Below, in pieces: positions 35,980-62,690 of a DNA stretch of 64,000 nucleotides. The notes beneath the pieces are model-generated. The model had not been told where the DNA came from, searched no databases, and worked only from the letters and a program-made list of their open reading frames with translations. Within the stretch, counting starts at the first letter, position 1. Each line of letters starts with the position of its first letter. This DNA is from Halobacillus sp. Marseille-Q1614. Its GTDB lineage: Bacteria > Bacillota > Bacilli > Bacillales > Halobacillaceae. The DNA lies in contig NZ_CADDWH010000001.1 of the NCBI RefSeq assembly GCF_902809865.1, positions 3,162,001 through 3,226,000 of the forward strand. Direction: 5' to 3'. The position numbers were made by a program, and so were the translations under genes.

Positions 35980-36320
35980 TGGACTGTTGCGTTTATTTAG
36001 AAGTGAAGCGGGGAGCAGGTGAGCTAGATCGTTCCACTCGCGGATCCCACCTTTGCTCCATCTCCCTGCAGGAGTCCCGCCATTTCTTAAGCCCCTTACC
36101 TTTTTGTAGTGGAAACGCAACGCTAAAACTTTTGGTAAAGATAATGAATTTAGTACTCTTCTTAAAGTTCCATTCTTAATACCGTAAAGGGCCGGGGGAA
36201 ACGGCGAGACTCCTATGGGAGGAAAGAACAGGGTGAGATCCCGGAGGGCTAAAAGCCCGAGGAAGCTCACCGTTCGCCCATGGAAAGCGAGTTGTTCCCC
36301 CGGCCCGGCTCTATACATTA
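35980..36320 (-). repeat. Family A composite repeat 1 (two inverted units)
   Basis: On the minus strand the order is unit L (36306-36189), middle segment with AGCGTTGCGTTTCC, unit R (about 36110-35995). Unit L is closed by GGGCCGGGGGAA (36189-36200) and TTCCCCCGGCCC (36295-36306), perfectly complementary. It has the same organisation as composites 2 and 3. It fills the gap between tRNA-Ser and serS; no gene is seen there. Confidence 0.85.
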
Positions 36321-36389
36321 AAACAAACGGAACCAACCTTTGATACACAAAGAAAAAGCCCGAGCCTAAGCCCGGACTTTTGTTATCAG

Positions 36390-37664
36390 TTATTTAATAA
36401 CTTCTTTTCCCCCCATATAGGGACGAAGGACTTCAGGAATAACGACAGATCCATCTTCCTGCTGGTAGTTTTCCAAAATGGCTGCAACAGTACGGCCGAT
36501 GGCAAGACCGGAACCATTGAGTGTATGGACGAATTCAGGCTTGCCTTTTTCTTCGCGTCGGAAACGGATGCCTGCCCGGCGCGCCTGGAAATCTTCAAAA
36601 TTAGAGCAGGAGCTGATTTCGCGGTACGTATCATTGCTTGGAATCCACACTTCGATATCGTACTTTTTAGCGGCTGTGAAGCCTAAATCGCCTGTACACA
36701 TACTCATAACCCTGTAAGGCAGTTTAAGCAGCTGTAGAACCTTCTCAGCGTGTCCTGTTAAAGCTTCTAGTACTTCATAAGAGTCTTCCGGTTTGACCAG
36801 CTGTACAAGCTCTACTTTATTGAACTGGTGCTGGCGGATCAGCCCTCTAGTGTCACGTCCTGCAGATCCAGCTTCAGAACGGAAGTTGGTGCTGAAGGCT
36901 ACGAATTTCTGCGGCAGGTCTTCGGCTTTTAATATTTCTTCACGATGATAGTTTGTAACCGGCACTTCAGCTGTCGGTACGAGGAAGTAATCCCAGTCTT
37001 CGATCTTAAAAGCGTCCTCTTCGAATTTAGGCAGCTGTCCTGTACCTGTCATTGACGTACGGTTTACCATTTGCGGCGGAAGCATTTCCTGATAGCCATG
37101 CTCATCCGCGTGGAGATCCATCATAAAGTTAAGTAAAGCGCGTTCTAAGCGTGCGCCTAAACCTTTATAAAAGACAAAACGGCTTCCAGTAACTTTTGCA
37201 GCTCTTTCAAAATCTACAATATCTAAATCAGCGGCTACATCCCAGTGAGCTTTGGCTTCAAAGTCAAACGCTGGAATCTCTCCCCACTTGCGGGCTTCAA
37301 TGTTGTCGTCTTCATCTTCTCCGACAGGAACACTCTCGTCTGGAATGTTAGGGATGGATAAGAGCATCGTATCCAGGCGTTCTTCCACCTGCTTAAGCTC
37401 ACCGTCTAATTCTTTAATGCGGTCCCCTACTTCACGCATTTCTTTAATTTTATCATCGGCGTCCTGCTTGTTCCTTTTCAATTGAGAAATTTCTTTGGAA
37501 ACGTCATTGCGGCGGGCTTTCAGCTCTTCTGATTCTTGGATAAGCTCCCGTCGTCTCACATCCAATTCTTCAAAAGCATCAAGCTCGGATAAATCTTCTC
37601 CTCGTTTTTGGAGCTTTTGTTTTACTTCTTCAAAATTCTGGCGTAAAAATTTTAAATCCAGCAT
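36390..37664 (-). CDS. serS: Seryl-tRNA synthetase
   Basis: Class II synthetase, 424 residues. The N-terminal tRNA-binding coiled coil spans about residues 30-105, rich in Glu/Lys/Arg. Motif 2 ([21 protein letters not shown]) and motif 3 ([18 protein letters not shown]) are intact. ATG 37664 follows AAAAGGAGGAAGC. A T-box leader controls it, but a 130-bp repeat lies between the leader terminator and the start codon. Confidence 0.96.
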
Positions 37665-37704
37665 ATAAGCTTCCTCCTTTTAAATAAAGTGGCTTGTTAC
37701 GTTG

Positions 37705-37815
37705 TGTAAGCAGGAAATTCACTCGCTTTCCGCGGACGAACGGTTAAGCCTCCCCGCATACTTCGGGGTCTTGCCCGCCCATTTTCTCACGCAGGAGTCT
37801 CACAAATTTCCTTTC
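37705..37815. repeat. Family A single unit in the serS leader
   Basis: Closed by AGGAAATT (37712-37719) and AATTTCCT (37805-37812). Contains ACTCGCTTTCCGCGGACGAA and CGCAGGAGTCTCAC. It is transcribed as part of the serS 5' leader, downstream of the T-box terminator. Confidence 0.8.
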
Positions 37816-37849
37816 CCACAATAACCTTTGAAAAGGTCCTAAAAATTAA

Positions 37850-38095
37850 AAAACCCCCGCCCCCTTATTAAATAAAGGGACGAGAGCTTGGTTATAAATT
37901 CCCGCGATACCACCCTGGTTGGAGATACTTGATCTCCCGGCTTCACTCCTAACGGCGAGTACCGATTTGCCCTACTAAAAGAGTTCAGGCAAACAACTCA
38001 AGGATGGATTCACTACTTTTCTTCATCAGTTCACACCAGCCACTGACTCTCTTTAGAAAGAAAGAATAGCTACTATTTCCTATCAACGTGTTAGC
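37850..38095 (-). promoter_or_regulatory. T-box riboswitch for serS
   Basis: The T-box sequence AGGGTGGTATCGCGGGAA is at 37916-37899 on the minus strand. Stem I elements (GAGAGTCAGTGG, GGTGTGAACTGATG) lie near 38055-38025. The likely specifier codon TCC (Ser) is at 38008-38006, just before ATCCTTGAG. The terminator is CTCTCGTCCCTT/AAGGGGGCGGGGG (wobble pairs) plus TTTTTT at 37852-37889. Uncharged tRNA-Ser(GGA) should cause readthrough into serS. Confidence 0.93.
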
Positions 38096-61127: not shown

Positions 61128-61156
61128 GCTGCCTAATTTTAGGCAGCTTTTTTATT
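61124..61156 (+). terminator. mnmE-mnmG-rsmG terminator
   Basis: AAGCTGCCTAA-TTT-TAGGCAGCTT followed by TTTTATT. Confidence 0.9.
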
Positions 61157-61253
61157 GAAAGAACTCGTCGTTTACGTTTAACGTTAATAAAGAAACGGTC
61201 AGGGGAAACAACTCGCTTTACCAGAGTTAAAAAACAAGCAGGAGGAGATCAAA

Positions 61254-61751
61254 ATGCAGCTAGTCATCCTAGCAGATACGCATATGCCGAAAAAAGCGAA
61301 ACAGCTGCCCGAAAAGCTGGTTCAGGAATTACAAAAAGCCGATCTTATTATCCATGCCGGGGATTGGCAGACTCCGGAAGTGTATGAACAGTTCCAGGAG
61401 TACGGAGAAGTCGTGGGGGTTTACGGCAATATTGATGGACCGGACATTCAAGAGCTCCTCCCCCGTCGGCAAATTCTCGAGCTTAATGGATATCGAATTG
61501 GCTTAGTCCATGGTCATGGAGAAAAAAAGACGACCGAAAAACGTGTAGTGGAAGAATTTGAAGGAGAAGAGCTCGACATCATCATATTCGGCCACTCCCA
61601 TTTGCCGCTGCTGAGATATGTGAAAAAAACGATGCTGTTCAACCCGGGATCTGCGACAGATAAACGCAGACTGCCGCGCTTCTCATTTGGAAAGATTACG
61701 CTGCAGGACGGTATACACGCAGAACATATTTTTTATGATTCCTTCGATTGA
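61254..61751 (+). CDS. YfcE/MJ0936-type metallophosphoesterase
   Basis: 165-residue calcineurin-like phosphodiesterase. The metal motifs are ADTHMP (8-13), HAGDWQ (36-41), GNID (near 60), HGHGE and FGHSHLP. Substrate unknown; family members hydrolyse phosphodiesters or nucleotides. ATG 61254 follows AGGAGGAGATC. It overlaps the convergent glycosylase gene by 19 bp. Confidence 0.88.
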   Translation: MQLVILADTHMPKKAKQLPEKLVQELQKADLIIHAGDWQTPEVYEQFQEYGEVVGVYGNIDGPDIQELLPRRQILELNGYRIGLVHGHGEKKTTEKRVVEEFEGEELDIIIFGHSHLPLLRYVKKTMLFNPGSATDKRRLPRFSFGKITLQDGIHAEHIFYDSFD

Positions 61752-62560
61752 CACGTCGGACAGTAATAACAGCGGCGGGATCCTGCTTTAAATTTAATGA
61801 TTTCTGACCCGTCGATGCGGCAGGGTTTGCCTTCACGGTTAAACACCCAGTGTCGATATTCATAACGCTTTGCCCCTTTGGCTTTCAGGCGTTCAGCTAA
61901 TTCAATATCAGTGGTAATACCTTTATGCTCATAAGAACGCCACATCAGCTCAATGCAGGCCACAGCCGCTTTTTTTAACTGCTGGTCTGTGCAATCCATT
62001 GGCCTTAAATCGGGATGAATGCCCGCGACAAATAAAATTTCGCTTCTTAAGTAGTTGCCAACTCCCGCAATAAAAGCCTGGTCTAACAGAAGTGCTGTCC
62101 ACCTTCTGCGGCGGAAACGCGAGCTTTTAAATCGCTCAACAAGTTCATCGGCTGTCACATAGTCATTTAAAAGGTCGGGACCGACTTTAGCGATAAATGG
62201 GTGGATTTCTACTTCTTCATTCCTCAGTACCTCTATATCTGAAGCGCTGTAAAGGAGCGCAGATTTTTCCTCATTATGGATAGCAAAGCGAAGCTGGCGG
62301 TTCGTCTTCGGATAATTATGAGCATTGCGTATATACCATTTTCCATACAGCTGGTTATGCGAGTAAACAGTATAGCCGTTATCAAAGCAGATCAGCATCG
62401 CCTTTCCTTTTGTTTCTACTTTAAGGATGTTCGCGCTTTTCAATAATGACTCGTAGTCCTTTAAATGATCAAAAGCAAAAAAGATATCAAGTACAGGTTT
62501 TCCGGTGATGGCTTTTTCCACATCATCCGCAGCACGTCGTATTTCTGGTCCTTCCGGCAT
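61733..62560 (-). CDS. Fpg/Nei-family DNA glycosylase (endonuclease VIII-like)
   Basis: 275-residue base-excision glycosylase/AP lyase. The mature N-terminus must be PEGPEIRRAAD (catalytic Pro2, Glu3), so ATG 62560 is the start, not the upstream GTG 62569; AAGGTG is 6 nt away. H2TH region IAGVGNYLRSEILF; C-terminal zinc finger ends CYYCPTCQ. PEGPEIRRAAD is more Nei-like than MutM-like. Removes oxidised bases. Confidence 0.88.
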   Translation of the reverse strand: MPEGPEIRRAADDVEKAITGKPVLDIFFAFDHLKDYESLLKSANILKVETKGKAMLICFDNGYTVYSHNQLYGKWYIRNAHNYPKTNRQLRFAIHNEEKSALLYSASDIEVLRNEEVEIHPFIAKVGPDLLNDYVTADELVERFKSSRFRRRRWTALLLDQAFIAGVGNYLRSEILFVAGIHPDLRPMDCTDQQLKKAAVACIELMWRSYEHKGITTDIELAERLKAKGAKRYEYRHWVFNREGKPCRIDGSEIIKFKAGSRRCYYCPTCQSKES

Positions 62561-62597
62561 TTTTTTCACCTTTTCTTTCCTATATTGTATTTAAATA

Positions 62598-62690
62598 AAA
62601 GAGGGAAATGGCGAGACTCCTGCTTAAAAACGGGCGGCCGAGACCCCGCAGCGAGGAGGTTTCGTTAAGGGAAGCGAGCCAATCCTCATA
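62598..62690 (+). repeat. Family A unit, decayed
   Basis: GGGAAATGGCGAGACTCCTG starts like unit R; GAGACCCCGCAGCGAGGAGG and AAGCGAGCC follow, but the terminal stem has decayed. Confidence 0.65.

What the first reader, a model, noticed from the sequence alone, without database searches (positions are those of the whole stretch)
35980..62690. Dispersed palindromic repeat family A whose terminal stems vary but stay paired
At least six intergenic copies share a core (GCGAGACTCCTGCAGGGAG ... GCGGAAAGCGAG). The ends form stems that differ between copies: GGGCCGGGGGAA at 36189, GGGCCAGGGAAAA at 43964, GCTGAGAAAT at 44180, GGCTGGGAAAT at 54456, AGGAAATT at 37712, GAAATAGA at 33312. Each has its complement at the other end. 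Such paired changes imply selection for a folded DNA or RNA, or a copying mechanism that makes inverted ends. I recall the core motif from intergenic DNA of other Bacillaceae, but no assigned function.
Basis: partly seen in the sequence, partly recalled or inferred. Interest (0 to 1): 0.78.

Follow-up and report, generated by a model that had tools for sequence, protein, structure and literature searches.

The report
Mobile DNA hairpins with swappable stems
These are copies of a widespread, apparently undescribed family of short jumping-DNA hairpins in Bacillus-like bacteria, in which the core stays the same while the stem sequences change freely yet usually stay paired; the enzyme that moves them is not known.

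Summary
The window has eight detectable modules plus one truncated copy of a dispersed hairpin family with a fixed core (GCGAGACTCC ... GGAAAGCGAG) and variable, paired stems. A strict core pattern hits 171 of 397 sampled genomes of the order (67 of 135 genera, up to 144 hits in one) and 0 of 391 sampled outside it. The stems are not host flank: in 39 divergent copies, stem positions 3-18 are Watson-Crick paired in 63% of cells against 33% after shuffling. All 55 multi-module clusters are divergent (31 modules stand alone). Sister species differ in presence, orientation or subfamily at matching sites, and spacers between divergent genes are avoided. One-sided stem changes give G.T and A.C about equally (236, 277), unlike tRNA (16, 0), so RNA function is not supported over most of the stem. 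Best reading: a non-autonomous REPIN/MITE-like mobile element recognised as folded DNA. The mobiliser is unknown: only one of 20 Y1 (RAYT-type) loci examined has the full core nearby, and genomes with no Y1 match, or a broken one, still carry the repeats. New variant of a known kind.

The parts
36008..36097 (-). module B of composite 1 (partly degenerate), between tRNA-Ser and serS
   Evidence: nhmmer score 57.4; serS named
36187..36312 (+). module A of composite 1, stem GGGCCGGGGGAA/TTCCCCCGGCCC
   Evidence: nhmmer 108.3; fold z -3.9
37710..37815 (-). solo module between the serS T-box leader and the serS start codon; stem GGAAATT/AATTTCC
   Evidence: nhmmer 57.3; not seen at this site in L051-L054 nor in G004
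43955..44080 (-). module A of composite 2
   Evidence: nhmmer 106.1
44096..44103 (.). outer inverted repeat (P0) AACGGAAC of module A, composite 2
   Evidence: read; recurrent in G004 copies
44104..44150 (.). central spacer of composite 2
   Evidence: read; module-to-module distance 85-107 nt in 37 of 38 G004 cases
44151..44159 (.). outer inverted repeat (P0) GTTCCGTTT of module B, composite 2; partner AAACGGA at 44306-44312
   Evidence: read
44175..44296 (+). module B of composite 2, stem GCTGAGAAAT-type, core GCGAGACTCCTGC ... GGAAAGCGAG
   Evidence: nhmmer 112.7; fold z -3.9
54248..54352 (-). module A of composite 3 (dnaA-rpmH spacer), stem decayed
   Evidence: nhmmer 81.6; P1 self score 0
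54453..54573 (+). module B of composite 3, stem GGCTGGGAAATT/GATTTCCCAGCC
   Evidence: nhmmer 100.0; fold z -3.9
62602..62690 (+). degenerate solo module
   Evidence: nhmmer 23.8 over 62602-62655; fold z -0.19
33308..33388 (+). truncated copy: outer stem GAAATAGA/TCTATTTC and the 3' half of the core only
   Evidence: read; not reported by nhmmer

Best explanation
A family of non-autonomous mobile DNA elements of the REPIN/MITE style. The module is a long imperfect hairpin of roughly 110-170 bp. It has a fixed core (GCGAGACTCCTGC on one side, GCGGAAAGCGAG on the other) forming a conserved internal loop, an inner arm, an outer stem P1 of about 18 bp, and often a short outer inverted repeat P0. 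In Halobacillus, and in the five pairs seen in another genus, two modules stand divergently around a short spacer, and I take this pair to be the spreading unit; solo modules also occur. Shown: the family, its range, the stem covariation across subfamilies, the fixed divergent order, presence/absence between species, and replacement and inversion at shared sites. Inferred: that an enzyme recognises the folded DNA (single strand or cruciform) by shape plus core, so that any stem sequence works if it pairs, and that new pairs often land in or beside old ones. Unknown: the enzyme and the exact cut points.
For: Amplification: 96 exact 13-mers in G004 against 0-8 in nine other congeners and 28 in G000. 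Range: 171 of 397 genomes of the order and 0 of 391 outside it, reversed control 0 throughout. Stem covariation: 22 dissimilar stems score 22.5 against their own arm and 4.7 against others, 0 of 20,000 permutations; 39 copies, columns 3-18, 63% against 33% paired. Divergent order: 55 of 55 multi-module clusters in stretches of four genomes and 5 of 5 pairs in two genomes of one other genus. Turnover: of 42 listed syntenic spacers with a module, 16 are occupied only in G000, 15 only in G004, 11 in both; of the 7 with A/B modules in both, 5 are inverted. G003 and G010 (95.6% identical where aligned) hold different subfamilies at some shared sites. DNA rather than RNA: one-sided changes G.T 236, A.C 277 against tRNA 16 and 0. 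Clustered modules score higher than singles, 89 against 43, p 7e-12, as reported for REPIN doublets (PMC3116915 abstract). Context: convergent spacers 32 of 84 against 117 of 599; divergent 7 of 84 against 154 of 599.
Against: No target-site duplication or exact end was established: at the 16 sites printed the empty-side gap ranged from -37 to 86 bp, and other empty-side gaps were larger. No transposase was identified. At about 70-89% identity, absence can also be loss; one G003/G010 difference looks like a deletion remnant. Within subfamilies A and B no pair passed my phylogeny-aware test (0 of 21,528 and 0 of 20,706). Interior arms covary weakly (8.5 against 6.2; own arm best in 1 of 21 rows). 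Stem positions 2-3 show G.T 24 against A.C 1. 31 modules stand alone.
Confidence: 0.6

Rival explanations
1. A structured RNA family (small RNA or untranslated-region element): the transcript folds and compensatory changes preserve the RNA.
For: Strong compensatory variation; stable predicted folds; G.T favoured at stem positions 2-3, 24 to 1; 11 to 8 in 20 independent stems.
Against: G.T is not favoured over A.C elsewhere: 33 to 29 at positions 4-18, 151 to 218, 236 to 277, against tRNA control 16 to 0. Paired modules stand in opposite strands (55 of 55), so any transcript reads one forward and one backward. No Rfam match at gathering score.
Confidence: 0.1
2. A true REP/RAYT system: elements mobilised by a Y1 (IS200-like) RAYT transposase.
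For: Inverted hairpin doublets, extragenic, better conserved than singles. All 11 genomes held for the genus have at least one Y1_Tnp match.
Against: 20 loci around Y1 matches were fetched; both core halves were found together in one of them, L147, about 0.7 kb from a Y1 fragment, while eight others had only isolated half-core matches with up to 2 mismatches. Of five intact loci printed with flanks, three carry GTACCNGGTAC-type and two CACCTCAGGTCATCC-type palindromes. G016 and G018 carry the repeats with no Y1 match, and G004, with most exact cores in the genus, has only a match with two stops.
Confidence: 0.1
3. A host DNA element (topoisomerase, nucleoid or terminator site) kept for its folded or bent form and spread by ectopic recombination or gene conversion rather than by a transposase.
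For: Enriched in convergent and depleted in divergent spacers; enriched near the origin in G004 and G000 (KS p 1.4e-5 and 0.004); modules swapped at fixed sites between close species.
Against: Very patchy: not detected in many genomes of the same genus and family; empty sites between sister species; outermost modules of arrays score lower than innermost in 26 of 27 arrays, 24 of 25 after removing false assembly copies.
Confidence: 0.15
4. Mutational palindrome correction: template switching at quasi-palindromes keeps arms complementary without selection.
For: Would give equal G.T and A.C and paired changes; double changes that keep pairing exceed independence about threefold in A and B, without correction for ancestry.
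Against: The core loop stays unpaired and fixed across genera, which correction alone would tend to erase; outer modules look decayed.
Confidence: 0.1

Closest known systems
REPIN/BIME with RAYT (Bertels & Rainey 2011, PMC3116915, abstract and outline read; TnpAREP, PMC8266576, abstract and outline read)
   Same: Inverted doublets of extragenic palindromes, non-autonomous, doublets better conserved than singles, many copies per genome
   Different: Module about 110-170 bp, against 20-40 bp for REPs (PMC3733652, abstract in listing); fixed internal-loop core with freely varying stems; no linked Y1/RAYT gene found in the 20 loci examined, and the RAYT loci printed here carry other palindromes
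MITEs (review PMC10969869, passages read)
   Same: Short, non-coding, intergenic, often with outer inverted repeats
   Different: The outer repeats differ between subfamilies and genera around one core; no parent insertion sequence known (not searched systematically) and no target duplication established
bcr1 of the Bacillus cereus group (cited in PMC3733652 and PMC2267715, passages read; original paper not read)
   Same: Dispersed intergenic mobile repeat of 147-167 bp in Bacillaceae, folds stably
   Different: Titled as specific to the B. cereus group; its sequence was not compared here
Bhal-1 stem-loop family of Bacillus halodurans (PMC2267715 Tables 3 and 4, passages read)
   Same: Intergenic stem-loop repeat, 74 bp, 36 copies, in a Bacillaceae genome; could be the same family
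   Different: Sequence not available to me; identity not tested

Membership tests
REPIN/REP-RAYT | Extragenic palindromes in inverted doublets, doublets better conserved than singles | tested here: met
   55 of 55 multi-module clusters divergent, 31 singles; mean scores 89 against 43
REPIN/REP-RAYT | Cognate RAYT gene flanked by the same repeat | tested here: not met
   20 Y1 loci: both core halves together only in L147, about 0.7 kb from a Y1 fragment; other palindromes beside the five intact loci printed
REPIN/REP-RAYT | Short palindrome of 20-40 bp | tested here: not met
   Module about 110-170 bp
REPIN/REP-RAYT | Terminal GTAG tetranucleotide | not tested
   Feature taken from PMC3733652 passages; not examined in the modules
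MITE | Short, non-coding, with terminal inverted repeats | tested here: met
   P0 repeats such as GTTCCGTTT/AAACGGAAC in G004 copies; about 345-bp version with AAAGAGGCTGGGACAAAA-type ends in Priestia megaterium
MITE | Target-site duplication | tested here: inconclusive
   Empty sites too diverged; a terminator-like hairpin stands on both sides of the insert at two of the 16 sites printed
MITE | Parent autonomous element with the same ends | not tested
   No systematic search for insertion sequences with matching ends
Structured RNA family (Rfam) | Match to a curated covariance model | tested here: not met
   No match at gathering score over any module in the window or over the element in 20 loci. 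At E up to 5, one overlap, a microRNA model at 36038-36244 scoring 22.8 against a cut-off of 230, taken as chance
Structured RNA family (Rfam) | Strand-specific G.U tolerance in stems | tested here: not met
   236 G.T against 277 A.C; tRNA control 16 against 0; exception at stem positions 2-3, 24 against 1
bcr1 | Sequence similarity to bcr1 | not tested
   No bcr1 sequence fetched

The most novel reading that the evidence does not exclude
A distinct class of transposable unit whose two ends are large DNA hairpins recognised by shape plus a fixed internal loop, so that stem sequences drift freely while staying paired. The pair is always divergent, preferentially re-inserts into or beside earlier pairs (youngest in the middle), and is moved by an enzyme other than the Y1/RAYT transposases.
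Probability: 0.3. Interest if true: 0.8.

Novelty: new variant of a known kind. Interest (0 to 1): 0.62.

Why it matters
By this sample it is a very common repeat of the order (171 of 397 genomes, up to 144 strict hits in one). Yet no paper in the held library contains the 13-base core. Of the 246 papers with one of four shorter strings, the 20 listed have unrelated titles (the other 226 were not seen). Stems that change freely but stay paired make a natural experiment on structure-only recognition of DNA, and the lack of a linked transposase makes the search for the mobiliser directly testable. The elements also remodel gene ends and leaders, for example between a T-box and serS here.

Tried and rejected
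RNAalifold on a MAFFT alignment of 22 mixed copies gave 7 pairs and no covariation, because the subfamilies were misaligned; it also failed on the A and B alignments. I replaced it by arm-against-arm tests. A within-subfamily R-scape-like test found nothing significant. The Y1/RAYT hypothesis was tested and disfavoured. Identical copies 3-4 kb apart in G004 suggested composite transposons; they look like assembly gaps and false duplications. Target-site duplications were sought at G000/G004 and G003/G010 sites and in Priestia plasmids without a clear result. Phage collection: no match for two queries. Plasmids: one Halobacillus-type query matched 2 records weakly, another genus's query none. 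Literature: core strings and keyword searches. Bhal-1 could not be compared, since supplements were not available. No covariance model was built and no search for an autonomous parent element was made.

Rows dropped before counts. start from 89 copies with both core halves, found in 81 of 110 loci scanned, thinned to 22 and 39 by arm similarity; degenerate copies are thus left out. The mismatch count also leaves out 2 of 22 stems scoring under 14 and the two pairs nearest the core. One search used 124 of 149 modules (those with both anchors). One search dropped 2 exact-duplicate clusters. One search lists only spacers under 3 kb on the syntenic chain.

Caution on 'inner younger than outer': outer tandem B modules lack part of their left arm, which by itself lowers their score, so age was not measured independently. 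The fixed-order count includes orthologous sites of related species.
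Full report
Observation. The window lies in a 3.98-Mb genome whose serS (named) is 90% identical to that of three Halobacillus records, so the genus is probably Halobacillus. The core GCGAGACTCCTGC with up to two mismatches occurs seven times in the window where 0.99 is expected, and 73 times in the genome with up to one mismatch, against 1 for the reversed control. A profile search places eight modules in the window. Of eight stretches folded as DNA, three had z about -3.9, one -2.5, and four -0.2 to -1.5.

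Anatomy. Each intact module is a long hairpin. From outside inward it has a short inverted repeat P0 (for example GTTCCGTTT/AAACGGAAC), an outer stem P1 of about 18 bp, a fixed internal loop (GCGAGACTCC against GGAAAGCGAG), an inner arm and a small hairpin. In G000 and G004 two subfamilies, A and B, form a composite of roughly 310-440 bp in which A and B point away from each other; the distance between modules is 85-107 nt in 37 of 38 G004 cases. Over 464 kb of G000, 509 kb of G004 and 120 kb each of G003 and G010, all 55 distinct multi-module clusters read minus-then-plus, none plus-then-minus, and 31 modules stand alone. The same order appears in 5 of 5 pairs from two genomes of one other genus. 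Arrays such as A-B+B+ are common in G004. The innermost module scored higher than the outermost in 26 of 27 arrays, or 24 of 25 when one falsely triplicated site is counted once; truncated left arms of outer modules contribute to this.

Stem covariation. Among 20 copies with dissimilar arms from this genome, other Halobacillus and other genera, own-arm scores averaged 18.9 against 5.2 for mismatched arms, 0 of 20,000 permutations; own arm was best in 13 of 20. With 40 further loci, 22 representatives gave 22.5 against 4.7, again 0 of 20,000, own arm strictly best in 16 of 22, and 2 of 22 with little pairing. Column by column in 39 copies, positions 3-18 were Watson-Crick paired in 63% of cells against 33% after shuffling (maximum 40%), twelve of the sixteen positions showing all four pair types. 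So the stems are not host flank and the paired changes are not chance. Against this, within subfamily A (49 sequences) or B (51), a phylogeny-aware test of my own found no significant pair, and the inner arms covary only slightly (8.5 against 6.2). In one search, double changes that keep pairing were about three times the independent expectation (61 and 62 against 21 and 22), without correction for ancestry.

DNA or RNA. If RNA pairing were selected, one-sided changes should leave G.U pairs. Counts of G.T against A.C were 151 to 218 in stems and 56 to 90 inside (124 modules), 11 to 8 in 20 independent stems and 1 to 4 inside, 33 to 29 at stem positions 4-18, and 236 to 277 for one-sided changes. 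Acceptor stems of 70 tRNAs gave 16 to 0. The exception is stem positions 2-3, 24 to 1 (position 1: 2 to 6), which I read as part of the fixed core sequence. No Rfam family matched the element at gathering score.

Mobility and turnover. G004 has 96 exact cores; the nine other congeners besides G000 have 0-8. That count sees only the B-type core: G003 and G010 hold many A-type modules instead. Comparing G000 and G004 along conserved gene order, 42 listed spacers hold a module in at least one: 16 only in G000, 15 only in G004, 11 in both. At seven sites both have A or B modules, and in five the orientation is opposite. In the spacer between dnaA and a 44-aa frame that I recall as rpmH, G000 and G004 carry the composite in opposite directions, seven other congeners have a short empty spacer, and two have longer spacers without it (by reading). 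Between G003 and G010 (95.6% identical where aligned), modules at some shared sites belong to different subfamilies while one partner module or the flanks remain (by reading). At least one difference there looks like a deletion. Sites avoid spacers between divergent genes (7 of 84 against 154 of 599) and favour convergent ones (32 of 84 against 117 of 599; gene calls are my own long open frames). They also lie nearer the origin than expected: 54% of sites within 30% of the distance for exact cores in both G004 and G000, 46% for the one-mismatch list of G000.

Range. A strict core pattern hit 171 of 397 genomes drawn from the order and 67 of 135 genera, with 144 hits in G280 and 136 in G118, and no hit for the reversed control. 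In a phylum sample of 398, only G000 itself hit: 0 of 6 other genomes of the order and 0 of 391 outside it. Plasmid records also hold relatives: 16 for one query, 18 for another, including one copy beside a zwf-gnd cassette in a Bacillus subtilis and a Paenibacillus plasmid, the two of that set that I opened. No phage record matched.

Mobiliser. A Y1 (IS200/RAYT) match is present in all 11 genomes of the genus. I fetched 20 loci around such matches. Both core halves occur together in only one, L147, about 0.7 kb from a Y1 fragment; eight others have only isolated half-core matches with up to two mismatches. Of five intact loci printed with their flanks, three carry GTACCNGGTAC-type and two CACCTCAGGTCATCC-type palindromes (by reading). 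G016 and G018 have the repeats and no Y1 match, and the G004 match has two stops. So the present mobiliser is unlikely to be a RAYT and remains unknown. Outer repeats differ between subfamilies and genera.

Known or new. It works most like REPINs: inverted extragenic doublets, better conserved than singles (PMC3116915 abstract; here 89 against 43). It fails the RAYT link and the size of REPs. It is MITE-like in size, place and outer repeats, but no target duplication or parent element was shown. No paper in the held library contains the 13-base core. I therefore call it a new variant of a known kind: probably mobile (about 0.85), probably acting as folded DNA (about 0.7), mobiliser unknown.

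Noticed in passing
L139, L140, L150 (GTACCNGGTAC); L144, L145 (CACCTCAGGTCATCC...): Halobacillus Y1/RAYT-like genes are flanked by their own short palindromes, a RAYT/REP-like arrangement in Bacilli.
   Followed up: partly
window 38802-39047: A 123-bp tandem duplication (98% identical) between pdxT and pdxS.
   Followed up: no
window 37710-37815: A module sits between the serS T-box leader and the serS start codon; it is not at this site in L051-L054 or G004 and could affect serS expression.
   Followed up: partly
L313, L314, L315, L317, L318: In Priestia megaterium the core lies in a roughly 345-bp element with AAAGAGGCTGGGACAAAA-type ends and a second, near-perfect hairpin whose sequence also varies while staying paired.
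   Followed up: partly
L035, L037, L043, L047, L048: Tandem second B modules in G004 lack most of the left stem arm, cut at nearly the same point a few bases before the core; unexplained.
   Followed up: no
L060, upstream of serS: Pontibacillus carries a different repeat-like sequence (GCGCTTGCGCTTTT type, recalled as common in Bacillaceae) in the same leader region.
   Followed up: no
G000 and G004 chromosomes: Copies are enriched towards the replication origin.
   Followed up: partly
L311, L312: One module copy lies in a zwf-gnd-glucose-6-phosphate isomerase cassette on plasmids of two genera, near a Tn3-family transposase in L312.
   Followed up: no
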